NCBI GenBank assembly: GCA_013360215.1
Contig: JABWCP010000029.1
Span: forward strand, 1-41,032
Direction: 5' to 3'
DNA from: a bacterium
Lineage (GTDB): Bacteria > CLD3 > SB21
Length of the DNA stretch: 41,032 bases
Shown one piece after another: positions 22,256-37,665 of this stretch. The notes beneath the pieces were generated by a model. That model worked only from the letters and a program-made list of their open reading frames with translations, was not told the DNA's origin and made no database searches. The translations under genes and the position numbers were made by a program. How positions within the stretch are numbered: position 1 is the stretch's first letter; the number at the start of each line of letters is the position of its first letter.

Positions 22256-23443
22256 GTGAAAACACTTCGACATGCCATCGTTTGGTTTGCTGTTATTTGC
22301 TGTGTTATGGCCGTATCCTTGTTGTTTGAGAAACCGCGTGATGCGGCGTTAGCTTTTTTGTTTATTATAGATATGGCTACGCCGGAGGCCTCCGATCTTT
22401 ATCAAGTCGTAACGGATGAAATAGTTGTCACACATGATTCTCTTGATCGTGAGTCAAAAAAAACGCTGTATTATTCTATTTATTCGCCACCCGGAAATCA
22501 TAAAAAATCAGCGATCATCATGGCGCATGGGTTTACTGAAAAAGGAAACAACGATCGAAGGTTACAACGTATGGCGCATCGTATGGCGCGTGCCGGTTTT
22601 ATTGTAATGACGCCTGAGTTTCCTATGATGCGGCGGTTTCGTATAAGTATGGAAGATGCAGACAACACCATGGAAGCTTTTCGTATAGTGAAGCAACGAC
22701 CGGATGTTGACTCGTCGTCTATCGGTTTGATGGGATTCAGTTATGGTGCGGGTCCGGTTATTATGGCGTTATCTGATTCTTCGATCAGAGATCAAGTACG
22801 CTTTGGTGTTATTTTTGGGGGTTATTTTGATATTCGAAAAACACTCAAATATACTTTAACAGGATATTACACGACCGATACCGGTCAAGAAATGCGCTCT
22901 GTATCTAAAAATAATGACCGATGGAAATTTCTATTGGGCAATATACCGGAAAGTGGGAACGAAAAATCGCTGGTTATTTTTAAATCTATAATCGCTCAAA
23001 AAATAACGGATGCCGGATATGACCCCGGGAAAAATTTTCTTTCATTGGATAGCACGCATCAATCACTGTATCGATTTATAGAAAATCAGAATCCCTCGGC
23101 TTTTGATGTATTGTACGCAGCTTTACCCAACGATTTTCGTTCTAAATTAGAATTGGCTGATCTTACGTCGTATGCGCACTTAATTCACTCCTACATGATC
23201 ATCGGCCACAGTGATCAGGATCGTGTCGTCCCGTACACCGAGAGTTTAGCATTAGCAAAAAATCTCACTTCGGCACCGGCTCCTTTTGTAGCTGTTACAA
23301 GTTTATTCACACACGTCAATTTAAAGATCGAATGGGGTTCTTTAACCCAAATTTTTACTGAAACGATTCAGGGATTTTTTCGATTATGGAAAATGACGTA
23401 TCATATTATGCGTATGCGTCATATACCGGTAGCCATTGCATAG
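22256..23443 (+). CDS. Alpha/beta hydrolase with N-terminal membrane segment
   Basis: A 395-residue hydrolase, probably anchored or exported through residues about 5-25. The fold is visible as 'SAIIMAHGFTEKGNNDRR' (oxyanion-strand region), the nucleophile elbow 'GLMGFSYGAGPVIMAL' (Ser), the acid in 'GHSDQDRVVPY' and the base in 'LFTHVNL'. It could be an esterase, lipase or peptidase; no diagnostic substrate motif was seen. Start choice is uncertain: there is no in-frame ATG until 22308, so GTG at 22256 (or the adjacent TTG at 22253) is proposed. It follows the peptidase by 36 bases and is followed by the barrel gene, so an envelope operon is likely. Confidence 0.83.
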   Translation: MKTLRHAIVWFAVICCVMAVSLLFEKPRDAALAFLFIIDMATPEASDLYQVVTDEIVVTHDSLDRESKKTLYYSIYSPPGNHKKSAIIMAHGFTEKGNNDRRLQRMAHRMARAGFIVMTPEFPMMRRFRISMEDADNTMEAFRIVKQRPDVDSSSIGLMGFSYGAGPVIMALSDSSIRDQVRFGVIFGGYFDIRKTLKYTLTGYYTTDTGQEMRSVSKNNDRWKFLLGNIPESGNEKSLVIFKSIIAQKITDAGYDPGKNFLSLDSTHQSLYRFIENQNPSAFDVLYAALPNDFRSKLELADLTSYAHLIHSYMIIGHSDQDRVVPYTESLALAKNLTSAPAPFVAVTSLFTHVNLKIEWGSLTQIFTETIQGFFRLWKMTYHIMRMRHIPVAIA

Positions 23444-23465
23444 CCCATCAGATAATTTAAAACAG

Positions 23466-24647
23466 ATGATGATTGAAACGGCAAATATAATTTCACTCAG
23501 GCGGCTTTTTGTTTTGAGTTGGTTTTTTGTAACCACGATCTGCGGGCAAAATTTGTATGAGAATCTGCAAAGCAGTTCAGGTGACACACCAGTGGATGTA
23601 TCACGTCGCACCAAAGGGCGTCGTTTTACGCCTATACCTTTGGTGAATTATACATCCGATGACGGTACGGGTTATGGTCTTCGTATGTGCGTGTATGACT
23701 ATGATAGTGTCACGGTGCCGTATCGTCGTGCTTTGAAAGCACAGTACTTTGTGACGACAGAGGGAAAATGGGCGCATGTGTTGTCTTTGGATTATCCGAA
23801 TTTTCTTAAAGGTCACCGTTTTGATTTCGAGTTAGCTTACGATAAGCTCGAGTTTGCCAATTATTACGGAGAACTTTCTAATCATATGGTGGATAGTTTG
23901 CGTTTGAGTAAATCACAACGAACTTTTCGTCAAGCTACACCGAGCGCATCCCTAACATGGATTTATGATCTGCATGGGCCATGGCGCCTTCGCGGCGGTG
24001 TGAGTATTCGCCATACTTCGGTCAAGCCCAATGCTGATTCAGGTAATATCCTTAAGGAACTGAAACCGGTGGGTTATAAAGGTGGTGTATTGTGGAAATT
24101 GGACGCTGCCATGCGATATGATACACGTGATAATTATATCAATTCCACGCGCGGGATATTAGAAGAGTTGCTTGTAGAATATAAAATAGGAGGAGAAGGG
24201 GATTATCAGGGGTGGCTCGCGAGTTATGAACATCGGCATTTCATTCCTATCACACCAAGTGTCGTGGCGGGATATCGTTTAGCGGCTGATCAAGTCTTTG
24301 GACAGATACCATTTTATGACGAATTGAAGCTGGGTGGTGAAGGTTCGGTGCGCGGTATGCCGTCGGCAAGGCGACGCGGGCAAGGTCGTTTTTTGGTTAA
24401 TACCGAACTGCGATGGCGTGGAATACATTTGTCGGATCGCCGTAATATGATGCTTGGGGTTATACTATTCACCGATGCGGGGCAAATTTATAAACGGAAA
24501 GACGGGCCATCCCTGATACCAAAAAACTGGCATGCCGGATACGGCGGAGGGCTTCGATTTTATTGGCATAGCACGATTATACGAACCGATTATGGCATTT
24601 CCGAAGGCGGAAGCGGTTTATACATTTTATTTTCACAGGTATTTTGA
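23466..24647 (+). CDS. Omp85/BamA-type outer-membrane barrel without POTRA domains
   Basis: The 393-residue protein opens with a signal peptide ending near 'TTICGQ' and then goes directly into beta-strand-rich sequence. 'GGEGSVRGMPSARRRGQG' contains the VRG of Omp85 loop 6, and the last strand ends in Phe ('LYILFSQVF'), as outer-membrane barrels do. BamA and TamA carry N-terminal POTRA repeats, but no room for them exists here, so this is a barrel-only (surface antigen/D15-like) form, comparable to patatin-linked or lipid-related members. Function unknown. Adjacent ATGs at 23466 and 23469 are the best starts; the frame extends back to a TTG at 23436 overlapping the previous gene. Confidence 0.86.
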   Translation: MMIETANIISLRRLFVLSWFFVTTICGQNLYENLQSSSGDTPVDVSRRTKGRRFTPIPLVNYTSDDGTGYGLRMCVYDYDSVTVPYRRALKAQYFVTTEGKWAHVLSLDYPNFLKGHRFDFELAYDKLEFANYYGELSNHMVDSLRLSKSQRTFRQATPSASLTWIYDLHGPWRLRGGVSIRHTSVKPNADSGNILKELKPVGYKGGVLWKLDAAMRYDTRDNYINSTRGILEELLVEYKIGGEGDYQGWLASYEHRHFIPITPSVVAGYRLAADQVFGQIPFYDELKLGGEGSVRGMPSARRRGQGRFLVNTELRWRGIHLSDRRNMMLGVILFTDAGQIYKRKDGPSLIPKNWHAGYGGGLRFYWHSTIIRTDYGISEGGSGLYILFSQVF

Positions 24648-24680: not shown

Positions 24681-24710
24681 ACAAAAAACGGCGAGTTTAG
24701 CTCGCCGTTT
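24681..24710 (-). terminator. Terminator downstream of icd (leftward)
   Basis: AAACGGCGAG (24686-24695) pairs perfectly with CTCGCCGTTT (24701-24710) around TTTAG. Read leftward, the stem is followed by TTTTTTGTTTT, so it ends the icd transcript. Read rightward, the T run starts later (after 'CATATTTAC'), so it may weakly terminate the barrel gene too. Confidence 0.85.
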
Positions 24711-24730
24711 CATATTTACTTTTTTTGGTA

Positions 24731-25966
24731 TTACATATTTGCGATGATCGCATCGCCAAATTCGCTACACTTGATTTCTTTTGCACCATCCATCAGGCGG
24801 GCAAAATCATAGGTAACCGTTTTTTTTGCGATCGAGGTTTCAAGTCCTTTGATCAAAAGATCGGCAACTTCATTCCAACCCATATAGCGAAACATCATTT
24901 CGCCGGACAATATCACCGAACCGGGGTTGACTTTATCTAAATCGGCGTATTTAGGTGCTGTGCCGTGTGTAGCCTCAAATACGGCATGACCGGTGATATA
25001 ATTGATATTACCGCCCGGAGCTATACCGATGCCGCCGACTTGTGCAGCTAAGGCATCCGACAGATAATCACCGTTGAGGTTCATCGTGGCAATGACATCA
25101 AAATCTTCCGGCCGCGTCAGTACTTGCTGTAGTGTGATGTCGGCGATAGCGTCTTTGATGATAACACCACTAGGCAATTTGACCCACGGCCCGCCGTCAA
25201 TTTCCACACCTCCGAATTCGCGTTTGGCTAATTCATAACCCCAATCACGAAATGCACCTTCGGTGTATTTCATGATATTGCCTTTGTGCACAAGCGTCAC
25301 GCTCTTACGTTTTTGTGCGATGGCATATTGGATGGCGGAGCGAATCAAGCGTTCGGAACCTTCGCGTGATACCGGTTTGATACCGATGCCGCTCGTTTCG
25401 GGGAATCGTACTTTTTTAACGCCCATCTCATTTTGAAGCCAGGCGATTACTTTTTTAGCTTCCGGAGATCCTTCTTTCCATTCGATACCGGCGTAGATGT
25501 CTTCCGTATTTTCGCGGAAAATCACCATATCCACTTTTTCGGGGCGTTTGACAGGAGAGGGAACGCCGTTAAAATAACGCACAGGGCGTAAACAGACATA
25601 TAGATCGAGTGTTTGACGTAAGGCTACATTGAGACTGCGAATGCCTCCGCCCACCGGTGTCGTGAGGGGACCCTTGATCGAAACGAGATACTCTTTGCAA
25701 GCAGTGATGGTATCATCGGGAAGCCAAGTATTGTATTGATCAAATGATTTTTGTCCGGCATATACTTCAAACCAATGAATTTTTTTCTTACCGCCATAAG
25801 CTTTTTGTACAGCGGCATCAAACACACGTACCGATGCACGCCAAATGTCACGACCGGTACCATCACCTTCGATAAACGGTATGACCGGATTATCGGGTAC
25901 TTGGAGTACACCGTTTTGGATTGAAATTTTTTGACCTTCTTTGGGGGGAGTAATGTCTTTGTACAC
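24731..25966 (-). CDS. icd: NADP-dependent isocitrate dehydrogenase
   Basis: The 411-residue enzyme oxidatively decarboxylates isocitrate to 2-oxoglutarate in the TCA cycle. Matches to E. coli Icd include '[12 protein letters not shown]', '[14 protein letters not shown]' with Ser111 at the position of the AceK-phosphorylated Ser113, '[16 protein letters not shown]', '[18 protein letters not shown]' and '[18 protein letters not shown]', whose Lys-Tyr pair marks NADP specificity. The start is GTG at 25966: AAGGA sits eight bases upstream and the length then equals the family norm, whereas the frame extends open to 26059 without a ribosome-binding site. A good promoter lies upstream and a terminator downstream, so it is monocistronic. 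Confidence 0.96.
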
Positions 25967-26012
25967 GGTTGGCTTCCTTATCGTGGTGAATGATGTGACG
26001 AAATGGTTTGAA

Positions 26013-26041
26013 AATATAGTTCCGATAAACCGCAAACTCAA
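26013..26041 (-). promoter_or_regulatory. icd promoter
   Basis: On the minus strand TTGAGT (26041-26036) and TATATT (26018-26013) are separated by exactly 17 bases, giving an inferred start near 26006 and a 40-base leader with an AAGGA ribosome-binding site before the GTG. Confidence 0.6.
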
Positions 26042-26116
26042 GTCGGTCGCGAATATCATTCAAAAAAGCCAACTTCGATACAAAGAACAATGACAAACGT
26101 CAGGCTCGATAGAGAA

Positions 26117-26221
26117 TTACAATCCGTCTGAATAACGATCCCGGCGATCACCATTGCCGTAGAATATCGCCATCACCATAACAACCATAAAAAAAGCAAG
26201 TGCCATAATCATGTACTGCAT
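26117..26221 (-). CDS. 34-residue Met-rich single-pass membrane protein
   Basis: This small gene encodes a protein beginning MQYMIMALAFFMVVMVM with one strongly hydrophobic helix (about residues 3-21) and a short charged, glycine-containing tail (GNGDRRDRYSDGL). Six of the 34 residues are Met, all at or in the helix. Support for a real gene comes from an AAGGGA ribosome-binding site (26231-26226) four bases before the ATG, a perfect TATAAT -10 box, and an exact CRP-type palindrome at class II distance. The size resembles the small subunits that stabilise respiratory oxidases (CydX/CcoQ-like), but no sequence identity is claimed. It is flanked by icd and the large minus-strand cluster on the same strand. 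Confidence 0.62.
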   Translation of the reverse strand: MQYMIMALAFFMVVMVMAIFYGNGDRRDRYSDGL

Positions 26222-26354: not shown

Positions 26355-27380
26355 TTAAAAATAGAGTTTATCTACGATAGATCGCGAATATTGCAGGGAA
26401 CAAACGCAACGCTGGCATATCGAATTTTGTGATATATCTAGGTTTTTCCGGAAGTGTATTGCATCGTCCCCATTTAGTATTTCCGGAAGTGGTTGATTGA
26501 AAAAATTTCCTAACGATGCATGAAAAAAACAAGGACGCACAGAGCCATCGGATTCTACCACAGCCGAAACCCACGGGGCGTTACAGGGTGGAGATTTGAA
26601 TGAACCTAAACCATGCACCGCTTCGTAATAATCTGCGATGCGCAGCAGTTTCTGAGGAGATTCTGAAATCCATCGCGTATGAAAAGCGTTATTAAATTCC
26701 TTTACTATATCTGACAAGCTCTGGCGCAGATCAGGAAGTTCATTGGGTGAGGGTATTATGGGATCTGTTTGTTCGGATTGCAAAGGCGAGGTGTGGTTAA
26801 AGGCTTGCGAATGCATATCCGCCGGTAAAAAACTCAACCGGCGTAACCCCATGTCTTGTGCGGCGATAATGAGTTCTTTTAAAAATCGGAAGTTTGATTT
26901 TTGGACTACACATCGCGCGGATATATTAAACTCCGGCTTAACGGTCAGTATGCTTTTAATGCCCACACGGATCTTTTCAAAGCCTCCGGGAATATTACGA
27001 ATGGTATCGTGAATTTGCGCCGGGCCGTCTAGAGATACGATCACCTCATCAATATGATCGGTAATGGATCGGGCAAACCGATCTAACAAAAGTCCGGTGG
27101 ATAATAATGTAAGTTTGATATCTGAAATTGATTTTAATGATGTGCAAAATTCAAACAAAGCGGGGTGAAGTAAGGCCTCACCGCCCGAAAAAACCACTTC
27201 ACGCACTCGCAACGATCGGATATCGTTTTCCAGTTTTTTAAAAATATCAGAATCCCACGATCGTAGATTTGAGTTGGATTTCCAGATATCACACATAAGG
27301 CAACGGCAATTGCAAGCGCTATGCGGCATCAGTACCAGTACAGGCAATGTTTTGATAGATTTTGATCTAAAAAAAGTCAT
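26355..27380 (-). CDS. Radical SAM protein with C-terminal SPASM-like cysteine cluster
   Basis: The 341-residue protein has the [4Fe-4S]/SAM motif CxxxCxxC as Cys23, Cys27 and Cys30 ('ACNCRCLMCDIW'), then 'VVFSGGEALLHP' (the GGE SAM-binding motif). The C-terminus has 'PPCNAPWVSAVVESDGSVRPCFFHA' type sequence and ends with 'CQRCVCSL', like the SPASM/twitch domains that hold auxiliary clusters. Such enzymes modify peptides, tRNA or small molecules by radical chemistry; no precursor peptide was found next to it. The ATG at 27380 is chosen because it overlaps the upstream stop as ATGA and GCGGAG lies eight bases before it. It is the last gene of the large minus-strand cluster. Confidence 0.88.
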   Translation of the reverse strand: MTFFRSKSIKTLPVLVLMPHSACNCRCLMCDIWKSNSNLRSWDSDIFKKLENDIRSLRVREVVFSGGEALLHPALFEFCTSLKSISDIKLTLLSTGLLLDRFARSITDHIDEVIVSLDGPAQIHDTIRNIPGGFEKIRVGIKSILTVKPEFNISARCVVQKSNFRFLKELIIAAQDMGLRRLSFLPADMHSQAFNHTSPLQSEQTDPIIPSPNELPDLRQSLSDIVKEFNNAFHTRWISESPQKLLRIADYYEAVHGLGSFKSPPCNAPWVSAVVESDGSVRPCFFHASLGNFFNQPLPEILNGDDAIHFRKNLDISQNSICQRCVCSLQYSRSIVDKLYF

Positions 27381-28552
27381 ATCCATGTCTCCGCTATTTT
27401 CCATACGGGATTTTGTTGAAGAAAAACGGAAGGAACGCCCGATGTTATGCGTTTCATCAACGAGGGCATATGTATGCACAGATAGTTTTGACGGATAAAT
27501 AACCTTTTTAATCGAAACGGCCAGCTGTGCGGCGGCTCACCGCGCAATAATCTTACACATCCGTTATGCAGCACCAGTCGGATATCATCGGGGTAAGTCG
27601 AAGTCAAATTCGTTTTGTAATCTTCTTGTTTGCGTGTTGCTATGAATAGATCAGCCGGTGCGCCTTTCGTAATGGCCATCGGCTTTTGTAAGCCGAATAT
27701 TCGTGATGGTCCGTTTGTTACCATGTGAAATATTTCATTCTCTGAAACCAGTCCTGTTTTAATGGCGTCACGAATTTCATCCAAAAGCGTCGGTGATCCG
27801 GTCAGAGTGGAATCGGTACCAAGGGCAACGGGAATGCGGTGTTTAAGCATATCTATCGGCGCAGTTCTTCCGAATAAGTATATATTGGAAGAAGGACACC
27901 AAACCAACGAAGCGCCTTTCTCCTGAAGACGATTTATTTGGTTTGCGGATACGGCAACACCATGAACCAGCACGGTTTGTTTCCGGAGATATCCTAAATT
28001 ATCCAATTCATCAATCTCTCTGGCCGCGCGCTCATTGATTCCTTCCGCAGCATGTATAATCAGCTTTTGTGTACCAAACCAACGCCTGCGGATTTTTTCC
28101 CCAAATACCAACGAATGCATCCATTGGTATCGGCTAAATACAGAGATCGGAAAACCAAAACGAAACCGCGCATGGTATGGATTGTGATGTACGACAGTAG
28201 TTACGCCTGAAATAATATTTTTAAATGCACCAAACAATAACCGATCGCGGAGCGGTAATGCCTCTATGTCAGAAACAGGCGCCGCATGGGGTTTATAAAT
28301 ATCATTTGCCCAAGCAACGTAGTCCTCATATGGCGGTTTCCCTAGCCTCGGATAAATATTCATTTCAAGATGATCGTGACTATTGATCAAACCCGGGTAA
28401 ACAAAATCGCCTTTACCGTCAATTACGATTTCACTCTTGTTTGGTTTTATGTCCTTATCAATTTCTACAATGTGACCATTCTTGATACGTAATGCGCCGC
28501 ATTGCAATTGTTCTTCATGTTCCCAGTTGACGTTTTGTATAAGCAGTTCCAT
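27377..28552 (-). CDS. Metal-dependent amidohydrolase (TatD/cytosine-deaminase-like superfamily)
   Basis: The 391-residue protein starts with the small beta domain typical of the family ('GALRIKNGHIVEIDKDI'), then 'VYPGLINSHDHLEMN' with metal ligands His59 and His61. 'LIIHAAEG', 'VLVHGVAVSANQI' and 'VALGTDSTLTGSP' supply the other His and Asp ligands of the ATZ/TRZ-type hydrolases that deaminate or dechlorinate ring compounds. The natural substrate is unknown. The ATG at 28552 sits eight bases after the stop of the upstream methyltransferase gene; an in-frame ATG at 28585 would overlap it by 26 bases. Its stop overlaps the next start as ATGA, indicating coupled translation. Confidence 0.87.
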   Translation of the reverse strand: MELLIQNVNWEHEEQLQCGALRIKNGHIVEIDKDIKPNKSEIVIDGKGDFVYPGLINSHDHLEMNIYPRLGKPPYEDYVAWANDIYKPHAAPVSDIEALPLRDRLLFGAFKNIISGVTTVVHHNPYHARFRFGFPISVFSRYQWMHSLVFGEKIRRRWFGTQKLIIHAAEGINERAAREIDELDNLGYLRKQTVLVHGVAVSANQINRLQEKGASLVWCPSSNIYLFGRTAPIDMLKHRIPVALGTDSTLTGSPTLLDEIRDAIKTGLVSENEIFHMVTNGPSRIFGLQKPMAITKGAPADLFIATRKQEDYKTNLTSTYPDDIRLVLHNGCVRLLRGEPPHSWPFRLKRLFIRQNYLCIHMPSLMKRITSGVPSVFLQQNPVWKIAETWI

Positions 28553-28559
28553 GTACCAA

Positions 28560-29219
28560 TCATTTTTTTTGGCATTGCATTGCAAATACTACCGGTGTAT
28601 TGAGCCACGAAGCTTCGTTATGTTGTAAGCATGTGAAGCCTGTATCTTCAAGCATTCCACGGTATGTTTCAAGAGTATGAGTATGGTGCGTTACAGTGTA
28701 AGTCACACCGTGATGATCAAAAGAGCGTTTCATACCCTGATGCGCTGCATGCGGATGAAAATCCGTAATAATCAATATTCCGTCAGGACGTAAAGCGTCA
28801 TAAATGCTGTGAAGAATAAGGTTCGGATCGTCGGTGTGTGCCAGAACCAGAGCGCATACGGCCACATCGAATGGTTCATCAACAACAAATGACTGTTTTT
28901 CTGAGATCGTACGAAATTCGGCTTTGTCGGATGGAATCAACTTCCGAGCTTTAATGATCATGTTTTCTGAAATATCAAGACCTAACACGCGTGCGGCACC
29001 ATGATCTAATGCAAGCTTACATGCATGACCTGTTCCGCAACCCACATCAAGTAAAGCTTTGTCTTTCATTTCAGGTAAATATTCTGAAACCATATTATCG
29101 GAAAACGATTTTACGGGATTACGTTCGGTGTCGTATGATTCAGACCACAGATTGTATGCTTCTTTAGGATTGAGCTGAACAGGTGCTTTCCCGAAGAATT
29201 TGCGTACGCGCCGGAACAT
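28560..29219 (-). CDS. Class I SAM-dependent methyltransferase
   Basis: The 219-residue protein has a UbiE/BioC-like N-terminus ('AYNLWSESYDTERNP') and the SAM core 'ALLDVGCGTGHACKLAL', 'VLGLDISENMI', 'FDVAVCALVLAHTDDP' and 'LRPDGILIITDFHPHAAHQG'. The His-rich stretch 'FDHHGVTYTVTHHTHT' around residues 165-182 is unusual and could bind metal or substrate. The start ATG overlaps the stop of the upstream radical SAM gene by one base (TGATG), so translation is probably coupled. The acceptor molecule is unknown, but its place between a B12-radical SAM enzyme and an amidohydrolase suggests a small-molecule or lipid-linked substrate. Confidence 0.9.
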   Translation of the reverse strand: MFRRVRKFFGKAPVQLNPKEAYNLWSESYDTERNPVKSFSDNMVSEYLPEMKDKALLDVGCGTGHACKLALDHGAARVLGLDISENMIIKARKLIPSDKAEFRTISEKQSFVVDEPFDVAVCALVLAHTDDPNLILHSIYDALRPDGILIITDFHPHAAHQGMKRSFDHHGVTYTVTHHTHTLETYRGMLEDTGFTCLQHNEASWLNTPVVFAMQCQKK

Positions 29220-30718
29220 CAGAACCCCTCCTTTTCAGGGCGGCGATATCGGAGCCAATATTTCTGAAGAAATTTCAATTCATATGGGTGCGCATACCGG
29301 TGAAACCGGTAACGCCACGAGGAAAACCATCGCATGGCAGTGCGCTGAAAAGCAGTTAGTTTGAGGTCGCTGATCGTCGGGTATTGTGCATTAAGAACAG
29401 TTTCAAAATCGTGAATATGACGGATCATCGCCGGAGTAAGCCACGGTGTCACATATTGACGGTGCAAATCAAAATTGAGCCACTCCGGTTTCATCCACTC
29501 ATCCAAATGTCGCGGGAACTGAAATCCGCGAGCTAAGGCCTGATTATATAAATCTGAACCTTCCGTAGGCACAGGTGTATATATATATATGATAATTTCA
29601 GTCGAAGGATTGATGGATTTTATTTCACGTATAAAGCGTATCTCCTGGTCAATCAGTTTCCAGACTTCATCTTCGGTGGCAGCCGGAAATCCAAGAACAA
29701 ACGAGTACTCCGGTATAATATCGTGTTCTCTTAATCGCGCGGCGAAACTCCGAAGTTTGTTACCGGACTGAGTTCCACCTTTGTCCATTTGGCGCAATAG
29801 CGTATCGTTTCCGCTTTCTGCTCCAAAAAATATCATGCGGCATCCCGACCGGCGCAGCGTCGCCAATGAAGCATCGCTATACTTATCCATCGTGTCAATT
29901 CGACCTTCTCCCCACCAAGCCATGCCGTCGTGCATAATACGTTCCGCAAATTCGACAACTCGTTTTTCAGAGACGAAGAAGTTATTATCGTGAAATGTGA
30001 TAGCGTTTCCGCCGTAGGTTTCTTTCAAAAATCGTATGTCACGGTAAATACGTTCAGCCGATTTGCCTTTCCAGCGTGTTTCGAAGATCGGTACAACGCC
30101 GCAGAATGAGCATGAAAATGGACAGCCTATACTTGAATGATAGGCAATAGTGCGCGTTCCCAAAAACGTTTTTCCCAAGTATCCATCCATCGGATAAAAG
30201 GAATGTAATGTGTCGTAGGGCAAATCCGGTAGCGTATCCTGATCAATAAGATCGGCTTTCGGTGTTTTATATATTGTGTCACCTGTGCGGTAAACGAGAT
30301 TGGAAATGGTTGCAACGGATGTTCGTGCCGTAAGCGCTTGCAGTAATTCGGGGAAAGCATGATCACCCGGTCCATTAATCACGTAATCAACATATCCCGA
30401 GCGAATCACAGTATGGCTTTGATTGGAAGCAAAATAACCACCCCAGATAATGGTCACGTGCGGATATTGTTCGCGGATCATTTTCGAAATAGGAATGGCT
30501 TGAGCAAGTTGCGGGCCGGGCATGACCGTGCAACAAAAGAATCCGAATGAAGGATCCCTGAATAAATCCATAATCTTTTCTAAAGGATCGGATTCCCTAT
30601 TGCCATCAACGATCACATAGTCATGTTGGCCATGTATCGAAGCGGCTATCTGTAAAATCGAGTTGGGTATGATTTTAGCGTGGATCGTAACTTTGGGGTT
30701 AAAAAAAATTATTTTCAT
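29219..30718 (-). CDS. B12-binding-domain radical SAM protein
   Basis: Residues about 1-140 form a cobalamin-binding Rossmann-like domain ('IIWGGYFAS', 'VDYVINGPGDHAF'). The radical SAM core follows with 'SSIGCPFSCSFCGVVP' (CxxxCxxC) and 'ITFHDNNFFVSEKR', then 'FFGAESGNDTLLRQMDKGG' and a C-terminal helical extension of about 130 residues. This layout is that of the BchE/HpnJ-like class, which performs methylations, cyclisations and C-C rearrangements of lipids and small molecules. The second gene of this class in the cluster is about 4.6 kb upstream. The start overlaps the flippase stop as ATGA, and its stop overlaps the next start by one base. Confidence 0.92.
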   Translation of the reverse strand: MKIIFFNPKVTIHAKIIPNSILQIAASIHGQHDYVIVDGNRESDPLEKIMDLFRDPSFGFFCCTVMPGPQLAQAIPISKMIREQYPHVTIIWGGYFASNQSHTVIRSGYVDYVINGPGDHAFPELLQALTARTSVATISNLVYRTGDTIYKTPKADLIDQDTLPDLPYDTLHSFYPMDGYLGKTFLGTRTIAYHSSIGCPFSCSFCGVVPIFETRWKGKSAERIYRDIRFLKETYGGNAITFHDNNFFVSEKRVVEFAERIMHDGMAWWGEGRIDTMDKYSDASLATLRRSGCRMIFFGAESGNDTLLRQMDKGGTQSGNKLRSFAARLREHDIIPEYSFVLGFPAATEDEVWKLIDQEIRFIREIKSINPSTEIIIYIYTPVPTEGSDLYNQALARGFQFPRHLDEWMKPEWLNFDLHRQYVTPWLTPAMIRHIHDFETVLNAQYPTISDLKLTAFQRTAMRWFSSWRYRFHRYAHPYELKFLQKYWLRYRRPEKEGF

Positions 30719-31926
30719 ATGGCTTCATGTTCCGATAAAGGTGTGTTACGATCAACGCTTTGTTCCGGTGCTCCGGATTGGAGTACATAAGCGCCCAATA
30801 ATAACCATTGCGTCAATGCGGCAGATGCGATGGCGCCGGTAAGTCCCAGTGAAGGGATAAACAGAATATTACCTGTCAAGTTGACCAATGCACCGATCAG
30901 ACTCAAACGCAAAACTATAATGGATTTATGTTGTTTGAGTAAAGCGTGTACATATGGTAAATATACGTACATCGGGAGCACAAATAAAAAACCGACGGCC
31001 AATGCCGTGATCGGGACGCGGGTATCCTCGATAAACCATAAAATCCCAATCAAACAAACGACGCCGAGCGCAGTCAAAAGGCTGCCTGCAAAAAGTGATT
31101 GTAAGCCCATGCGCCGAATATGAGAGGCTTGTAACCGATATAGATTTTTTAACTGCGTTGAAATGGCAAACTCCGGCAGCGCTTGTAAAAAGCTAAGCAC
31201 ATTCATGACTATATGATAAACTCCTAATTCGGATGGCGGTAGCAGAACAGCAACACTGTAGGTGTCCATTTTAGAAACTAACAAACCGCTGATATTTTGC
31301 ATGGCAAGAGCCCATGCATGTTTGAGTTGATTCCATTGCGCGATAACTCTAAACCACAATCTGAATGTATTTCTCCATGCTATCAATAGAATGATAAGTC
31401 GGCAAAGAGCAGCCATGCAAGTGGCCCAGATCAAATGGATATGCTGCATCTCCGATGACCATAACGATAACCCTAAAAAAACGGCTGTACCTGCAAGATC
31501 ATTGAGGATGCCGAGTATGTATCGGTGATGAAAAATAATCGCCGGTTCAAATGCATGGATTCCAAATAAACATACGAACCAAAGCAGAAGAGGCGGTAAG
31601 GCGTCATTCGCTTGGACAACAGTACACATCAAAGCGATGGGTAGGATAAGTAAGGGTAAGCGCGTTTTGATATTCGTCAACCAGAGTTCCTGCCAGCGTT
31701 GCGGTTGATCCGAAAAAGCACGCAGTAAATATAAGCGGGAACCCCAATTGGCAAAAGTAACTCCAAAATGGATAACGATCAGATACCGCGCATAATTTCC
31801 CCACACCTCAAGCGAAGCCGTACGAATAATCACCACCGAGGAGATCAACCCCGCTGCGGGCGGAATCGCGTTGCGGAGAGCATTCCATAGCATCGGCATC
31901 CATCGTTGCGGCCATCGGTGTTTCAT
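30715..31926 (-). CDS. Polysaccharide flippase-like membrane protein (Wzx/MATE-type)
   Basis: The 403-residue protein is polytopic, with about 11-12 membrane segments, and resembles the O-antigen flippase/polysaccharide biosynthesis family ('AGLISSVVIIRTASLEVWGNY' near the N-terminus; 'MQNISGLLVSKMDTYSVAVLLPPSELGVYHIVMNVLS' centrally, given only as an approximate span). Such proteins move undecaprenyl-linked glycans across the inner membrane. Its place next to two glycosyltransferases supports that role. The ATG at 31926 is preferred to the in-frame one at 31950 because a GGA lies at a better distance. It is separated from the upstream GT87 gene by 100 bases, where a second promoter is possible but none is clear. 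Confidence 0.86.
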   Translation of the reverse strand: MKHRWPQRWMPMLWNALRNAIPPAAGLISSVVIIRTASLEVWGNYARYLIVIHFGVTFANWGSRLYLLRAFSDQPQRWQELWLTNIKTRLPLLILPIALMCTVVQANDALPPLLLWFVCLFGIHAFEPAIIFHHRYILGILNDLAGTAVFLGLSLWSSEMQHIHLIWATCMAALCRLIILLIAWRNTFRLWFRVIAQWNQLKHAWALAMQNISGLLVSKMDTYSVAVLLPPSELGVYHIVMNVLSFLQALPEFAISTQLKNLYRLQASHIRRMGLQSLFAGSLLTALGVVCLIGILWFIEDTRVPITALAVGFLFVLPMYVYLPYVHALLKQHKSIIVLRLSLIGALVNLTGNILFIPSLGLTGAIASAALTQWLLLGAYVLQSGAPEQSVDRNTPLSEHEAI

Positions 31927-32026
31927 AGGGTATTCCAAAACGAATCGCAAATTAATCGTAAGCTTGTAGTTAGAAACTTTAAATCAAAAATCATGCTATG
32001 GTCGGGCTATTTGTCTATAACGTTAT

Positions 32027-33334
32027 TCATGTTTTATATCTAGGTTCAGAATTTGAATATAACGATTCTACGGAATACCACGCTTGATGTATTGTAAGAG
32101 CGAATAGGGCTGTCGTCGCATATAGACGCGGATAACCCAAAGCGGCCCACAGCCCATCAGGTTTTAAAGTTATGATCTGATGAATGGGGAAGTAGCTTAT
32201 CATAAGATAGAGACATCCCGCCGCGAGTTTAGCCCGCGCCGAAAACCAATTTTGAAAAAAAATAAAAGCTAAAGGAAAAACTAGCAGAACGAAATGGTAT
32301 GTTGCCGACGCAGGCAGTAAAGTAAAGATGGCTAACCAAATTACTACAAGCATTTTATCATCTCGATGTTCGCATCGAGATTTGTACAATTTAAATAACA
32401 CAACTACAGTTGTTACGAAGATGATTCCGTGTAGAAGGTATTTTATAACATGAGCTAATATAGGTAAGTCCAGAAGAGGATTGGCGTTATAATCGGGATG
32501 AAAAACGAAAAGATAATGCAAAACCCCCGTCCATGCCTGATAGGCGATGGCGTATGGAGTTCCGGAAGGGATTTCTGCTGCAAGGTGATTAAGAAATATG
32601 TTCCGAAAAAAAGATGCATTCAATGTATAACCGAAAACTAAAATTTGAATTATCATGCACACAATGATGCTTATGCCCATAGCGCTGACGGCCTTATAGC
32701 GTCGCTGCAGTAATAAGAATGGAATAAATATGGCCGTAAAATATTTTATCATAGCGGCTAGGCCGAGCAATAAACCGGTTAATATATTCCTATTATATTT
32801 GAGCAGCATATAACTACCCATACAAATCAAAAGAAGTATGATGTACAACTGTCCGGCTCGAAAATTATTGATCAGTCCAAAACCTGAAGCAAGTACCAAA
32901 ATTCCTGAGGTAAGAAACGATTGATGGAAAAGTCGCATTAGCCAGAAAACAATCATTCCAAGAGCAACGAGATTAACTATAATCCATATATTTTTAGCTG
33001 TTGCCGCTTCGAAATTAACGAGCGGAGTCATTACAAAAACTGTTAATGGCGGAAATTGAGAAAATCTTCCGGAATTAAAACCATGCTCGGTTAATTTTTT
33101 GTCAAACCACTGATCATCATAAAAATATTCGGCCGGATGCCCTTCGTTGTATAATTTAGCGGCCAAATAATAATTTGGAAAATCTCCATGAACGTCATTC
33201 CATGAAACCCATATGCCGCGCCAAAAAAACAAAGACGCCAGCACAACAAACGTAATCACTTGGCTACGCTTAAGATTCACTGCGCGGTATCTCCAATGAA
33301 GGATTTTTAGAAAAGTAGCTATTGAGTGTTTCAT
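32027..33334 (-). CDS. GT87-family membrane glycosyltransferase
   Basis: The 435-residue protein has roughly ten membrane segments. After the first helix comes 'DVHGDFPNYYLAAKLYNEG', with the acidic residue and YY motif of GT-C glycosyltransferases of family 87, and then 'RFSQFPPLTVFVMTPLVNF'. These enzymes transfer mannose or other sugars from a polyprenyl phosphate donor on the outer side of the membrane, adding to lipid-linked acceptors. Start choice is uncertain: ATG at 33334 overlaps the upstream GT9 gene by 65 bases, while a GTG at 33280 with GGAG ten bases before it would overlap by only 11. Confidence 0.85.
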   Translation of the reverse strand: MKHSIATFLKILHWRYRAVNLKRSQVITFVVLASLFFWRGIWVSWNDVHGDFPNYYLAAKLYNEGHPAEYFYDDQWFDKKLTEHGFNSGRFSQFPPLTVFVMTPLVNFEAATAKNIWIIVNLVALGMIVFWLMRLFHQSFLTSGILVLASGFGLINNFRAGQLYIILLLICMGSYMLLKYNRNILTGLLLGLAAMIKYFTAIFIPFLLLQRRYKAVSAMGISIIVCMIIQILVFGYTLNASFFRNIFLNHLAAEIPSGTPYAIAYQAWTGVLHYLFVFHPDYNANPLLDLPILAHVIKYLLHGIIFVTTVVVLFKLYKSRCEHRDDKMLVVIWLAIFTLLPASATYHFVLLVFPLAFIFFQNWFSARAKLAAGCLYLMISYFPIHQIITLKPDGLWAALGYPRLYATTALFALTIHQAWYSVESLYSNSEPRYKT

Positions 33335-34454
33335 AAACCTGAGATACGGAGATATTTTGCATGCATGCGCATTGACGGTAGCAAACGATTTTTTTATCGT
33401 TATAAATCGAAATACACGGACTGCAATATTCGTTAGAGCTTAAAGCTGATTGATTTACTCCTACCGGTCCGTATAAAGCCGGGGTTTCCGGGCCAAAAAG
33501 ACCGACCGTCGGAGTGTTCGATAAAGTAGCTAAATGCATAGGCCCGGAGTCATTCGTAACCAGTGCAATGGCCTTGCTCAGCATATACGATGTACCGGCA
33601 ATAGTAAAGTGGCCGCACGCGCTAATCATTCGGGCCGAAGATACCATCGCACAAAGCGTTTCAACGCGTTGAATATCTTCTGTTCCGCCTATGACAATAA
33701 TGACACACTCTGGTTCGACAGCAAACCATCGTTTCGCTAATTCTGCAAAACGCTCCAGTGGCCATTGTCGTTCAGGTGCCATACTGCTGGTATTAGGGTT
33801 AAAAACGATAAACCGGTTAATACCTCGTGTTTTTAGGAAAGCATCCACTTTGGATTTCTCGCCATCCTCAGCAACACACGGAATAAGTTCGTCGGTATGT
33901 ATCGTAAATTTTACCGCTTTTAGCGAATCCATGAAAATTTTCGAAATATGGCGTGTTTCGGAATAAGGTATAGTTATATCAAAAATATTTTTGGCACTGC
34001 CGGACGGATTGAAACCTACGAGAAAACTACGGTATGACCAAAAACTTAGCATTGCGGTAAACCGCGATGCAAACTCGAAATCAAACACAATATCCGGCGG
34101 TTGTGCGCGCAAGAACGACATAATTTGGTACAAAGAACGGATCGCCTTGGGCAACGAATTTAAATCGAAATACATAAGTTGATTGATCCATGGACCGGGA
34201 GCGTACAAGCTTTGGTTTTGTTTAAGTGTGATTAACGTGATGTGTGCTTCGGGGCAATTCAGTCGCATATTACGGATAGCGCTACTACCAAGAATCACCG
34301 AACCCATACCCCACATTTTAATAATGACAATACGCCGTATCTCATTTGGCAATGGGCATGTTTTTTTTCGGAAGCGACTAATAACCGACAATATTCGACA
34401 CAACGGTTTCCCGAACTTACGATCAATCCATCGAGCGGTACGTATCGTGATCAT
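33270..34454 (-). CDS. GT9-family glycosyltransferase (heptosyltransferase-like)
   Basis: The 394-residue GT-B enzyme shows 'RRIVIIKMWGMGSVILGSSA' near the N-terminus, where GT9 enzymes bind the acceptor, and in the C-terminal half 'FNPNTSSMAPERQWPLERF', 'VIVIGGTEDIQR' and 'TNDSGPMHLATLSNTPTVGL' followed by 'GPETPALYGP'. These match the ADP-heptose-binding site of ADP-heptose:LPS heptosyltransferases. The C-terminus has a Cys-rich stretch ('YCSPCISIY', 'CYRQCACMQ'). It may add heptose or a related sugar to a lipid-linked glycan in the cytosol, then hand over to the GT87 enzyme and flippase. The gap to the upstream methyltransferase is 37 bases. Confidence 0.92.
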   Translation of the reverse strand: MITIRTARWIDRKFGKPLCRILSVISRFRKKTCPLPNEIRRIVIIKMWGMGSVILGSSAIRNMRLNCPEAHITLITLKQNQSLYAPGPWINQLMYFDLNSLPKAIRSLYQIMSFLRAQPPDIVFDFEFASRFTAMLSFWSYRSFLVGFNPSGSAKNIFDITIPYSETRHISKIFMDSLKAVKFTIHTDELIPCVAEDGEKSKVDAFLKTRGINRFIVFNPNTSSMAPERQWPLERFAELAKRWFAVEPECVIIVIGGTEDIQRVETLCAMVSSARMISACGHFTIAGTSYMLSKAIALVTNDSGPMHLATLSNTPTVGLFGPETPALYGPVGVNQSALSSNEYCSPCISIYNDKKIVCYRQCACMQNISVSQVYETLNSYFSKNPSLEIPRSES

Positions 34455-34491
34455 TCTTTTACAATACTTCGAATTAAGAAATCAGAGCCTG

Positions 34492-35313
34492 TCATGATAC
34501 GTTTCTCGTCTTTTTTTGAAATGTCCATATCACGTGATCGGCCCAATGATTAAGTGGCCACGATGTTGAATACCCTTCCTCAGCTCTTTTCAGATAAGCG
34601 TATATGTCCGGATGAGAAACTGCAAAATCCATACGATGGGGAGGCGGCACTAGGGCGCCTAAACCTTCGGACTGACAAAGTTGATATCCGTCACCCAAAG
34701 CTTTTTGCACGTCGGAAACATTGAAATAGTAACATTGGAAATAAATACCCTCGACATGTGCACGTGCGCCACCGCGATGCAGGCGTCGAAAGGCATACCT
34801 CAGATGGCCTTTGAGTGCAGCGGCTATTTCCCATGGTGAGATTTTGGGCATGATCACCCATGTCAGGCGGCCGCCGGGTTTGAGCAAATCGTCTATATGT
34901 TGAGTTACAAGTCTGAGATTGGGTGCGCAATTGAGTCCTCCGAAATTGGAAAAAATATAATCGAAGGGGCCGTTGGAGATACGGTTTAATTCCGTATAAG
35001 ATAATTGTTCTATCGTTATACTGTTTTCCAAATTTGCAGCGGTAATTTTTTTTCTCATCTGACGGATCATACCTTCGGAAAGATCCGTAGCATGCACGGT
35101 ACATCCGTATTGTGCAAAGCGCATCGCATCAATACCGGTTCCCGCGTTGATTTCCAGTACCCGTTCTCCCGGTTTTAAAAATTCAAAAACGTGATTGTAT
35201 ACACGTTGTCGCATCCACAATAATATCGGGTTCGATTGGTCATACGCGTCGTACCCCTCAGACTGCCGCGAGAACGCTGTGTTGATATCGTCTAATGAAT
35301 CGGTTGGTATCAT
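34492..35313 (-). CDS. Class I SAM-dependent methyltransferase
   Basis: The 273-residue protein begins with 'INTAFSRQSEGYDAYDQSNP' and has 'VLEINAGTGIDAMRFAQYGC' as the cofactor loop (the usual IG replaced by IN), 'VHATDLSEGMI', 'FDYIFSNFGGLNCAPN' and 'LLKPGGRLTWVIMPK'. An insertion of about 30 residues with 'RYAFRRLHRGGARAHVEG' is basic and may contact a charged acceptor. It starts four bases after the upstream B12-radical SAM gene, so the two are surely co-transcribed. The acceptor is unknown. Confidence 0.9.
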   Translation of the reverse strand: MIPTDSLDDINTAFSRQSEGYDAYDQSNPILLWMRQRVYNHVFEFLKPGERVLEINAGTGIDAMRFAQYGCTVHATDLSEGMIRQMRKKITAANLENSITIEQLSYTELNRISNGPFDYIFSNFGGLNCAPNLRLVTQHIDDLLKPGGRLTWVIMPKISPWEIAAALKGHLRYAFRRLHRGGARAHVEGIYFQCYYFNVSDVQKALGDGYQLCQSEGLGALVPPPHRMDFAVSHPDIYAYLKRAEEGYSTSWPLNHWADHVIWTFQKKTRNVS

Positions 35314-35317
35314 ATAA

Positions 35318-36757
35318 TCATTTCGGATCGGTCGGGTTCAATGGCCTCATTCTTGTCAGTTGAACGTACGGGCCGTATATCAAATACTTGATTAAATAAT
35401 ACACGGCATGGATACATCGGTGCCATGGACCACGTTTTAAAAAAAGTCTAAGCCGATATTCTGCATGCACAAAACGATGCAGTGCTTTGTAAAAAGATTT
35501 GGAATACGTTCCCTCAAACATCATATCCAAATCATCGGAATCAGACCAATTATGCTTTTCTTTCAATTCATTGCGTACGCGTTCATAAAAAGGAGTACCC
35601 GGCAGAGGATACGATACAGATATGCCGAGTTCATCGGGAAGATTTTGGCGTATCATCGCACGTGTCGCATTGATATCATTCCACGATTCACCGGAATAAC
35701 CGAACTGGATAAAGTATGCCGTTTCGATGCCCGAGCGACGAAGATTTTGTGTGGCCTCGTCAATCTGTGTACGTTGTACGCCCTTATCCATGGCGTTCAA
35801 TATTTTTTGCGAACCGGATTCGGCTCCCAACCAGACGGTACGACAACCCGATTCACGCAGTGCGCTGATCGTATTGCCGCGCAACAGTAAGTCAGCGCGA
35901 CTGAGGCATTTGTACGGCAGATGGAGGCGGCGTTGTTGTAAAGCGACAGCAAAGCTATCGAGCCATCCCGGCTTCAATCCGAAAATGTCATCCGTAATCC
36001 ATATATGATCGGCACCATACCGGTGATGCAGGCGATAAAATTCGTCGGCAGTTGACTCGGCTGATCGTGCGTGATACACTTGCCCATATATCGGTTTGGC
36101 GCACCAGTTGCAGTGATACGGACATCCGCGGGACGTCGTGACGTTCATGGAAAAATATCCGTGATGCCGCTTCCATTCGTTTTGATACGAAGCGATATCT
36201 ACTAAGGTAAAATCCGGTGCAGGCAATTGGTCAATATTCAAAGTTGCATTACGTCGGCCCGGATGATCGGATGGTGCTATATCGCGCCGGAGGAGACCGG
36301 ATACTCGGCGATCACCGCGCCGGACATCATCGTGATGTACGATATCGGATATCACGGATTCACCTTCACCGATGATGACCCCGTCGGATCCGTTATTCAA
36401 ATATAGCGGGGCATGGTCGGTCGCGTCCGAACTATACACGAATACGGGGATTTGGTGTTCGGTCGAACGGCGGATCATATAGAAAGCCGCTTGACGCATA
36501 TTGGTAAGGCACATCTTGGTGAGATAATTGAACTCATCATCATAGATAAAATGCAAATCAGGCCGCCATGATGCTATGGTTTGATCAAACGATTTCATGT
36601 CGCGTGAGAACATGCCGTCAATGATACGCACATCATGCCCTTCATTACGTAACATCGCAGCGGCTATGAGTGTTCCCAGCGGTGCATACGGCATGTGACG
36701 TTTCTCTTCTTTAGGGTCGAGATAACGTTGGTAGGATTGAGTAAAGAGTATTTTCAT
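35318..36757 (-). CDS. B12-binding-domain radical SAM protein
   Basis: The 479-residue protein carries an N-terminal cobalamin-binding-like domain (about 1-150, with 'MPYAPLGTLIAAAMLRNEGH' and 'GSDGVIIGEGES'). The radical SAM core has 'TTSRGCPYHCNWCAKPIYG' (CxxxCxxC), 'IWITDDIFGLKPGWLDSF' and 'TVWLGAESGSQKILNAMDKG'. The C-terminal extension is basic and partly hydrophobic, which may bind a membrane-linked substrate. It is distinct in sequence from the second B12-radical SAM protein in the cluster, so the two probably act at different steps. The start overlaps the upstream stop as ATGA. Confidence 0.92.
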   Translation of the reverse strand: MKILFTQSYQRYLDPKEEKRHMPYAPLGTLIAAAMLRNEGHDVRIIDGMFSRDMKSFDQTIASWRPDLHFIYDDEFNYLTKMCLTNMRQAAFYMIRRSTEHQIPVFVYSSDATDHAPLYLNNGSDGVIIGEGESVISDIVHHDDVRRGDRRVSGLLRRDIAPSDHPGRRNATLNIDQLPAPDFTLVDIASYQNEWKRHHGYFSMNVTTSRGCPYHCNWCAKPIYGQVYHARSAESTADEFYRLHHRYGADHIWITDDIFGLKPGWLDSFAVALQQRRLHLPYKCLSRADLLLRGNTISALRESGCRTVWLGAESGSQKILNAMDKGVQRTQIDEATQNLRRSGIETAYFIQFGYSGESWNDINATRAMIRQNLPDELGISVSYPLPGTPFYERVRNELKEKHNWSDSDDLDMMFEGTYSKSFYKALHRFVHAEYRLRLFLKRGPWHRCIHAVYYLIKYLIYGPYVQLTRMRPLNPTDPK

Positions 36758-37665
36758 CCGGCTAAATTTTGTTTACGCTGAAGGCGCTGCTCAATATGAG
36801 CCTCAATAAGTGCGCCGTAATCAATATTCCATCGGGACGATGCCTGATCGGTCGTTGAAAAAAGCTTGTCACGCTGGGATTGTTGAAGCTCGGGATGCCG
36901 CCATTTCCATATCTTATCCCAGATACGCCGTAGGAATGTATCCATACCGGGAATCACCAGAGGAAAACAAACCCACTCCAAAAAACGTTGTACGTAAGAA
37001 GGGTTGGCCTCCGATTTTGACGGATGCGAAGGAAATTTCCAATTGGGTAAAAAGTCATGTATCCATCGGTTGTTTTCCTGAAAGCGATCCAATGCTTTAG
37101 CATTCCATAGCATTTTGACGGTGGCGGTTTCGTATGCCGTATAATAGCTTTTAAATGGTATCTCCAAACCGTCTTCTGCCAGTATGTAATTCACGCAAAA
37201 GTTATCATTATCGTTAAGCAGGAAAATCTTTTTTATTACGGTAAATAGCGTGCGTACAAGCCATACACGTCCGTGAGGAACAATAATCAGATAATCGATA
37301 TCATCGCTGGCATCCGCTACGTTTTTTGATAAACTGCCGGTTAATAACACTCCGCGTACAAACGGAATGAATGCCATCCAACGTGCAATACGTTCTGCTT
37401 TAGCCTTGAGCGGCGCGGCGCGTTTCTCGTCTTCCAAACGTTTGTTGACGATATCTGTTGTGTGATCAGTAAAACAATAGTATCCGTCGCGGCAAATGAT
37501 TTCTCCCTCCGCACACCACTGATTAAGTGCTGCTTCCAGTTGTTTGGTGTCACGGCAGGGGACGGCAAGCATACAGCGAATTTCTTCGGAAGTCAGTGGA
37601 TACTTGAAATAGTCGCAGTAGGCGATAACGCGTACTATGGCGTCAGAAACAGATTGGCTCATCAT
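36754..37665 (-). CDS. Winged-helix plus nucleotidyltransferase-domain protein
   Basis: The 303-residue protein opens with a winged-helix-like segment (about 5-65: 'VIAYCDYFKYPLTSEEIRCM', then 'GEIICRDGYYCF') followed by a pol-beta-type nucleotidyltransferase core. 'RGVLLTGSLSKNVADASDDI' and the next residues D-Y-L-I-I give the GS...DxD pattern of a metal-binding active site. The C-terminal 120 residues are helical. Its substrate is unknown; nucleotide transfer to a sugar, an antibiotic-like molecule or a protein are all possible. It is the first gene of the cluster, and the downstream start overlaps its stop as ATGA. An adjacent ATG at 37662 is an alternative start. Confidence 0.85.
   Translation of the reverse strand: MMSQSVSDAIVRVIAYCDYFKYPLTSEEIRCMLAVPCRDTKQLEAALNQWCAEGEIICRDGYYCFTDHTTDIVNKRLEDEKRAAPLKAKAERIARWMAFIPFVRGVLLTGSLSKNVADASDDIDYLIIVPHGRVWLVRTLFTVIKKIFLLNDNDNFCVNYILAEDGLEIPFKSYYTAYETATVKMLWNAKALDRFQENNRWIHDFLPNWKFPSHPSKSEANPSYVQRFLEWVCFPLVIPGMDTFLRRIWDKIWKWRHPELQQSQRDKLFSTTDQASSRWNIDYGALIEAHIEQRLQRKQNLAG

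What the first reader, a model, noticed from the sequence alone, without database searches (positions are those of the whole stretch)
26355..37665. Ten-gene minus-strand cluster joining two B12-radical SAM enzymes, GT9, GT87, flippase and an amidohydrolase
Seen: ten consecutive co-directional genes, with ATGA overlaps at 36754-36757, 30715-30718 and 27377-27380, a TGATG overlap at 29217-29221, and a four-base gap between the second and third genes. Known: GT9 adds heptose-like sugars, GT87 uses polyprenyl-phosphate sugars, Wzx-like proteins flip lipid-linked glycans and BchE/HpnJ-class enzymes remodel lipids or small molecules. Inference: a pathway for an unusual methylated or radically modified glycan or glycolipid. 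I do not recognise this gene set from any described pathway.
Basis: partly seen in the sequence, partly recalled or inferred. Interest (0 to 1): 0.78.

Follow-up and report, generated by a model that had tools for sequence, protein, structure and literature searches.

The report
Conserved radical-enzyme cassette for surface glycans
The ten genes are one flavour of an apparently undescribed enzyme cassette, found beside sugar-assembly genes in several bacterial phyla, that probably builds an unusual, radical-modified part of an exported surface glycan or glycolipid.

Summary
The ten-gene minus-strand run is real, with the overlaps stated. The genes are not a chance collection. A scan of about 85,000 species genomes, using only the first B12-radical SAM gene (B12A), returned 79 independent loci, mostly Bacteroidota, Ignavibacteriota and Anaerolineae. 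Within 10 kb these carry the same nucleotidyltransferase (70), methyltransferase MT1 (61), second B12-radical SAM enzyme (B12B, 41), SPASM radical SAM protein (23), amidohydrolase (16) and MT2 (16); 12 carry all seven. Among 386 unselected genomes, close B12B and SPASM homologues occur in only three and four.

The sugar genes are the variable part. GT9 and GT87 are minority options; other loci use GT4, GT2, ABC exporters, Wzy or initiating transferases. The glycan setting holds, but GT9 and GT87 do not define the system.

New rule: of 44 loci holding B12A and B12B, 23 carry an NPPY methyltransferase (MTc7), 17 carry MT2 plus amidohydrolase, none both. Two of the other four are clipped by an end of the stretch; the remaining two are Ignavibacterial tandem-B12B loci. 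The alternatives switched six to seven times on the B12A tree.

Chemistry and product are unknown. HpnJ, BchE and heptosyltransferase assignments fail curated cut-offs. No paper found describes the set.

The parts
36754..37665 (-). g1 NT: winged-helix plus MNT/AadA-like nucleotidyltransferase, first gene of the unit
   Evidence: No Pfam hit for the window protein; orthologue in L033 hits PF01909. AlphaFold mean pLDDT 92.8; Foldseek best PDB matches AadA and MNT antitoxins, weak, E about 0.01, TMt about 0.5 for MNT domains. G110, D122 and D124 invariant in 44 sequences.
35318..36757 (-). g2 B12A: B12-binding-type radical SAM enzyme
   Evidence: PF04055 over cut-off, PF02310 just below; Cys motif 212/216/219 and strand-3 loop DxFNYLTKMCL (nearly all positions) invariant in 60 sequences; nearest solved structures by sequence AprD4, 9ccb, CysS, OxsB
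34492..35313 (-). g3 MT1: SAM-dependent methyltransferase
   Evidence: PF13649; MT1 in 61 of 79 B12A loci, the immediate next gene in 53
33270..34454 (-). g4 GT9-family glycosyltransferase (variable part)
   Evidence: PF01075 88 bits, over cut-off; GT9 in only 7 of 79 loci
32027..33334 (-). g5 GT87-family polytopic glycosyltransferase (variable part)
   Evidence: PF09594 84 bits, over cut-off; at least 8 hydrophobic segments; two GT87 profiles hit in 5 and 9 of 79 loci
30715..31950 (-). g6 polytopic flippase-like protein (variable part)
   Evidence: PF13440 below cut-off; profile family recurs in cassette loci L055, L076, L120, L045, L094, L110, L117, L145, L147; profile match to a PF01943 flippase set, probability 88%
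29219..30718 (-). g7 B12B: second B12-binding-type radical SAM enzyme
   Evidence: PF04055 and PF02310 over cut-off; 41-64% identical across phyla; model pLDDT 88.8; PDB matches MgmA, TsrM, AprD4, CysS, TokK, OxsB at E 1e-16 to 1e-21; strand-3 loop TxMPGPQ invariant in 41
28560..29219 (-). g8 MT2: SAM-dependent methyltransferase, pairs with the amidohydrolase
   Evidence: PF13489 72 bits; MT2 in 16 and AH in 16 of 79 loci, together in 15
27377..28585 (-). g9 AH: TRZ/ATZ-type amidohydrolase (aminohydrolase)
   Evidence: PF01979 70 bits; H70, H72, H178, E181, H208, D258 invariant in 17 cassette orthologues; nearest PDB guanine deaminases
26355..27380 (-). g10 SPASM-domain radical SAM protein
   Evidence: PF04055 and PF13186 over cut-off; cluster cysteines invariant in 16 orthologues, 32-49% identity

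Best explanation
The cluster is one flavour of a modular biosynthetic cassette. Conserved tailoring core: NT + B12A + MT1, plus B12B with either MT2+amidohydrolase (as here) or the NPPY methyltransferase MTc7, often with a SPASM radical SAM enzyme. It builds or decorates an unusual moiety of a lipid-linked oligosaccharide or glycolipid. A locus-specific set of glycosyltransferases (here GT9 and GT87) and an exporter (here a Wzx/MATE-like flippase, elsewhere an ABC exporter) assembles and exports it. Proposed order (inference): NT transfers a nucleotidyl group to a precursor; B12A and B12B carry out radical C-methylation or rearrangement on unactivated carbons; MT1 methylates; B12B's product carries a nitrogen that is either N-methylated (MTc7 route) or hydrolysed off by AH, with MT2 methylating (the route here); GTs extend and the flippase exports. 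Shown here: conservation of the gene set, its glycan-locus context, intact catalytic residues, and the either/or rule. Inferred: substrates, reactions and order.
For: B12A-only selection brought the other core genes back in 79 named loci. Close homologues are rare in a background of 386 genomes: B12B in 3 genomes above 500 bits, SPASM in 4, NT in 11. The far lineages G154 and G240 carry much of the set on one contig. G002, in the window's own family, keeps NT-B12A-MT1 and MT2-AH-SPASM while the middle is exchanged for SGNH, ABC, GT9, GT4 and GT2 genes. 58 of 79 loci hold a GT-type gene; ABC 17, initiating sugar transferase 17, Wzy 16; the g6 flippase family recurs. Ignavibacterial L081, L153/L154 and L156 carry the core with GT9 and GT87 as here. 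AH/MTc7 exclusion: 17 against 23, none with both, among 44 B12A+B12B loci; six supported independent switches, sign test p 0.03. MTc7 carries NPPY.
Against: No biochemical data. 21 of 79 relatives have no recognised GT within 10 kb. GTs are common in Bacteroidota genomes and no matched background count of GT density was made. The order of steps and the shared-nitrogen idea rest on family chemistry only. G002 has MT2+AH without B12B, so that pair does not strictly need B12B. Two Ignavibacterial loci have neither alternative. The 79 loci are the best 80 of at least 469 relatives of B12A, so frequencies apply to close relatives only. Many are draft contigs cut short, and families were called with bit thresholds I chose.
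Confidence: 0.55

Rival explanations
1. The core makes a small-molecule natural product (aminoglycoside-like or nucleoside-like, secreted) and the GTs and exporter glycosylate and pump it; the NT would be a self-resistance or activating enzyme of the AadA kind.
For: AprD4 (apramycin) and BlsE (blasticidin) rank among the nearest solved relatives of B12A/B12B and the SPASM protein; NT core resembles AadA and LinB weakly.
Against: All resemblances are distant. Most loci sit with polysaccharide GTs, Wzy, initiating transferases or flippases. No NRPS, PKS or carrier-protein gene appeared among the neighbour clusters examined.
Confidence: 0.2
2. The product is a radical-modified membrane lipid (hopanoid- or ladderane-like), glycosylated and flipped.
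For: B12A and B12B give sub-threshold scores to HpnJ and to the ladderane B12 radical SAM family TIGR04072.
Against: Scores are far below cut-off (97.8 against 360; 99.7 against 577.6). No isoprenoid or fatty-acid synthesis gene appeared among the recurrent neighbour clusters examined.
Confidence: 0.12
3. AH is a by-product scavenger (5'-deoxyadenosine or SAH deaminase) for the three radical SAM enzymes and two methyltransferases, not a pathway step.
For: Second-best NCBIfam score is 5'-deoxyadenosine deaminase, 69.7 bits; catalytic residues intact.
Against: 69.7 is far below the cut-off of 522. AH pairs tightly with MT2 and is absent wherever MTc7 is present, although those loci also carry B12A, B12B and often SPASM.
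Confidence: 0.1
4. RiPP maturation: the radical SAM enzymes modify a short peptide.
For: B12-radical SAM plus SPASM enzymes are common in RiPP clusters (general knowledge).
Against: No small ORF is conserved across the loci; glycan genes dominate the surroundings.
Confidence: 0.02
5. Chance operon of unrelated enzymes in this one lineage.
For: None beyond the rarity of the exact ten-gene order.
Against: Recurrence across phyla with conserved adjacency, for example MT1 directly after B12A in 53 of 79 loci.
Confidence: 0.01

Closest known systems
Wzx/Wzy- and ABC-type surface polysaccharide (O-antigen, exopolysaccharide) gene clusters
   Same: Glycosyltransferases plus Wzx-like or ABC exporter, sometimes Wzy and initiating transferase, with a variable middle and conserved flanks
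   Different: A dedicated core of three radical SAM enzymes, a nucleotidyltransferase, methyltransferases and an aminohydrolase, which I know from no described polysaccharide locus; the window copy has no initiating transferase or polymerase of its own (initiating transferases lie elsewhere in the genome)
AprD4 (apramycin pathway radical SAM 1,2-diol dehydratase)
   Same: B12-type N-terminal domain plus radical SAM barrel; best sequence-matched solved structure for both B12A and B12B
   Different: Distant (17% identity in the structural alignment with B12B); NCBIfam AprD4 cut-off 500, scores 56-58; partner genes differ
Cobalamin-dependent radical SAM methylases MgmA, TsrM, TokK, CysS; ring-contractase OxsB
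   Same: Same architecture; B12B model matches them at E 1e-16 to 1e-21; the loop after strand 3, which lies under cobalt in TsrM, TokK and OxsB (PMC13331322), is invariant in both families here
   Different: 12-16% identity; different invariant loop residues (TxMPGPQ, DxFNYLTKMCL); substrates unknown
TRZ/ATZ aminohydrolases (guanine, 8-oxoguanine, 5'-deoxyadenosine deaminases)
   Same: Metal and catalytic residues HxH, HxxE, H, D all present
   Different: At most about 71 bits against cut-offs of several hundred; constant partner is a methyltransferase in a glycan locus

Membership tests
HpnJ hopanoid radical SAM (TIGR03471) | Score over the curated cut-off of 577.6 | tested here: not met
   90.9 (g2) and 99.7 (g7)
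BchE (TIGR02026) | Score over the curated cut-off of 481.35 | tested here: not met
   74.2 and 112.6
TIGR04295 B12_rSAM_oligo | Score over the curated cut-off of 400 | tested here: not met
   77.7 (g2) and 35.1 (g7)
Radical SAM superfamily with B12-binding-type domain | CX3CX2C cluster motif and PF04055 over cut-off | tested here: met
   cysteines invariant
Radical SAM superfamily with B12-binding-type domain | Cobalamin actually bound and used | not testable with these tools
   PF02310 over cut-off for g7 (37.6 against 32.1), just below for g2 (28.2); strand-3 loops invariant; needs purified protein
SPASM radical SAM | PF13186 and PF04055 over cut-off | tested here: met
   g10
LPS heptosyltransferase (TIGR02195/02193/02201) | Score over the curated cut-off (134.6/185.3/170.2) | tested here: not met
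   77.4, 67.2, 63.5; GT9 family membership itself is met (PF01075)
GT87 | PF09594 over cut-off, polytopic membrane protein | tested here: met
   84 bits, 8 hydrophobic segments
Wzx/MATE flippase | Pfam family score over cut-off | tested here: inconclusive
   17.4 against 23; own family matches a PF01943-type profile at 88%
Amidohydrolase superfamily, aminohydrolase type | HxH, H, H, D metal set and HxxE | tested here: met
   invariant in 17 orthologues
Described polysaccharide or natural-product pathway | Same gene set reported in a paper | tested here: inconclusive
   Seven full-text searches of open-access PMC gave no match; subscription papers are not held

The most novel reading that the evidence does not exclude
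A previously undescribed class of exported glycoconjugate, made by a cross-phylum cassette with three radical SAM enzymes. Its key nitrogen-bearing intermediate has two interchangeable fates (N-methylation by MTc7, or hydrolysis plus methylation by AH+MT2), so lineages switch between two versions of the same surface molecule.
Probability: 0.3. Interest if true: 0.82.

Novelty: new variant of a known kind. Interest (0 to 1): 0.62.

Why it matters
Radical SAM enzymes with a B12-type domain do chemistry that ordinary enzymes cannot, such as methylating or rearranging unactivated carbons, and most have no known substrate. Here two of them travel together with a third radical SAM enzyme, a nucleotidyltransferase and defined partners, in cultured Bacteroidota as well as in Chloroflexota and Ignavibacteriota. 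The either/or rule between MTc7 and MT2+AH gives a direct handle on function: comparing the surface glycans of two close relatives of opposite type should reveal the modification. If right, it points to an unseen layer of bacterial surface chemistry.

Tried and rejected
First genome-contig scan with the amidohydrolase alone found nothing. RiPP idea: no conserved small ORF across loci. Defence idea: PADLOC hits are only generic methyltransferase, radical SAM and viperin-fold matches. HpnJ, BchE, ladderane and heptosyltransferase identities rejected on curated cut-offs. Promoter and terminator scans no better than shuffles. Literature searches returned nothing on this gene set; the eustigmatophyte/Bacteroidetes six-gene paper PMC5133447 surfaced by keyword but was not read, so no relation is claimed. 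G000 lacks CobS, so if B12 is used it is probably scavenged; uptake genes were not checked.

Full report
Observation. The unit starts at 37665, facing away from leuS (+ strand), and ends at 26355, followed by 295 bases before an isocitrate-dehydrogenase-like gene. The third radical SAM gene most likely starts at the ATG at 27380, which makes the ATGA overlap there real. The window is a whole 41-kb contig of a 3.7-Mb genome whose class has few species in the collection searched.

Anatomy. g1 is a winged-helix nucleotidyltransferase: no Pfam hit for the window protein, an NTP_transf_2 hit for its orthologue, a confident model and weak AadA/MNT resemblance, with the G...DxD residues invariant in 44 relatives. 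g2 and g7 are B12-binding-type radical SAM enzymes. g3 and g8 are class I methyltransferases. g4 is GT9 and g5 is GT87. g6 is a polytopic, flippase-like protein below Pfam cut-off whose family recurs in other cassette loci. g9 is an aminohydrolase-type amidohydrolase with all metal and catalytic residues invariant. g10 is a SPASM radical SAM protein.

Are the genes linked elsewhere? In G002, same family as the window, NT-B12A-MT1 and MT2-AH-...-SPASM are kept while the middle is replaced by SGNH, ABC transporter, GT9 and GT4 genes, with a GT2 between AH and SPASM. A genome-contig scan with B12A alone gave 80 named loci, one of which (L043) repeats G004. In the other 79, profile counts within 10 kb were NT 70, MT1 61, B12B 41, SPASM 23, AH 16, MT2 16 and a B12A paralogue 21; MT1 is the next gene after B12A in 53 and NT or SPASM the gene before in 57; 12 loci hold all seven core genes. 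The background is low: among 386 genomes spread over the domain, B12B homologues above 500 bits occur in three genomes, SPASM orthologues in four and NT in eleven. G240 and G154, from other families, were recovered by these searches and carry much of the set on single contigs.

What is variable. GT9 appears in 7 of the 79 loci and the two GT87 profiles in 5 and 9; GT4 types, GT2, ABC exporters, initiating sugar transferase and Wzy are commoner, and 58 of 79 loci have at least one GT-type gene (families). Ignavibacterial loci L081, L153/L154 and L156 combine the core with GT9 and GT87, close to the window's make-up. Anaerolineae, regarded as lacking LPS (general knowledge), also carry the cassette, which speaks against an LPS-core role.

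The either/or rule. AH and MT2 go together (Fisher p 5e-14). A different methyltransferase, MTc7, with the NPPY motif usual in N-methyltransferases (motif meaning from general knowledge), never occurs with them. Of 44 loci with both B12A and B12B, 23 have MTc7 only, 17 have AH+MT2 only and none has both. The four others are L056 (has MT2, contig ends there), L076 (stretch ends just after B12B) and the Ignavibacterial L081 and L156, which have a tandem B12B paralogue instead. Among the 37 rows with enough flank (36 hold B12B; G002 was added although it lacks B12B), all have exactly one alternative, with seven changes on the B12A tree and six supported independent switches. The sign test is at its minimum of p 0.03, so this is strong in pattern but modest in formal power. 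MT2 or MTc7 is nearly always directly beside B12B.

Mechanism. Shown: conservation, linkage, glycan context, intact active sites, alternative modules. Inferred: B12A and B12B methylate or rearrange unactivated carbons; NT adds a nucleotidyl group; AH hydrolyses a C-N bond and MT2 methylates, whereas MTc7 methylates the nitrogen. A cobalamin role is plausible because the loop after strand 3, which lies under cobalt in TsrM, TokK and OxsB (PMC13331322), is invariant in both families. It is unproven, and g2's B12 domain is just below Pfam's cut-off. The genome lacks CobS.

Comparison and novelty. Curated models for HpnJ, BchE, ladderane B12, B12_rSAM_oligo, AprD4, the heptosyltransferases and named deaminases all score far below cut-off. 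By structure B12B is nearest MgmA, TsrM, AprD4, CysS, TokK and OxsB. Seven literature searches found no description; subscription papers are not covered. I file it as a new variant of surface-glycan biosynthesis loci, with an undescribed radical SAM core.

Limits. The loci are the best 80 of at least 469 relatives of one gene. Contigs are often short. GT enrichment was not compared with matched random loci. Bit thresholds for families were my choice. Titles such as Bifidobacterium breve for L105 and L120 are not credible as hosts.

Noticed in passing
window 26117-26221 (-): A 34-aa hydrophobic ORF (MQYMIMALAFFMVVMVMAIFYGNGDRRDRYSDGL) preceded by a ribosome-site-like GAAAGGG lies between the cluster and the isocitrate-dehydrogenase-like gene.
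   Followed up: no
L081 18441-21305, L156 11717-14784: Ignavibacterial loci carry B12B followed in tandem by a B12B paralogue (about 260 bits) and neither MTc7 nor AH: a possible third flavour of the cassette.
   Followed up: partly
L152, L155, L157, L158: B12B homologues that sit away from B12A, with neither MTc7 nor AH+MT2 beside them; L155 has it next to SPASM.
   Followed up: partly
L105, L120: Records titled Bifidobacterium breve whose B12A groups with Chloroflexota and with Flavobacterium: mis-titled or mis-binned MAGs.
   Followed up: no
window 24685-24711: A strong bidirectional terminator-like hairpin (11 pairs) between the convergent genes at 23436-24647 and 24731-26059.
   Followed up: no
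L055 12427-13875 and 20 other loci: A B12A paralogue (B12C, about 33% identical) often sits just after MT1, giving some loci a third B12-type radical SAM enzyme.
   Followed up: partly
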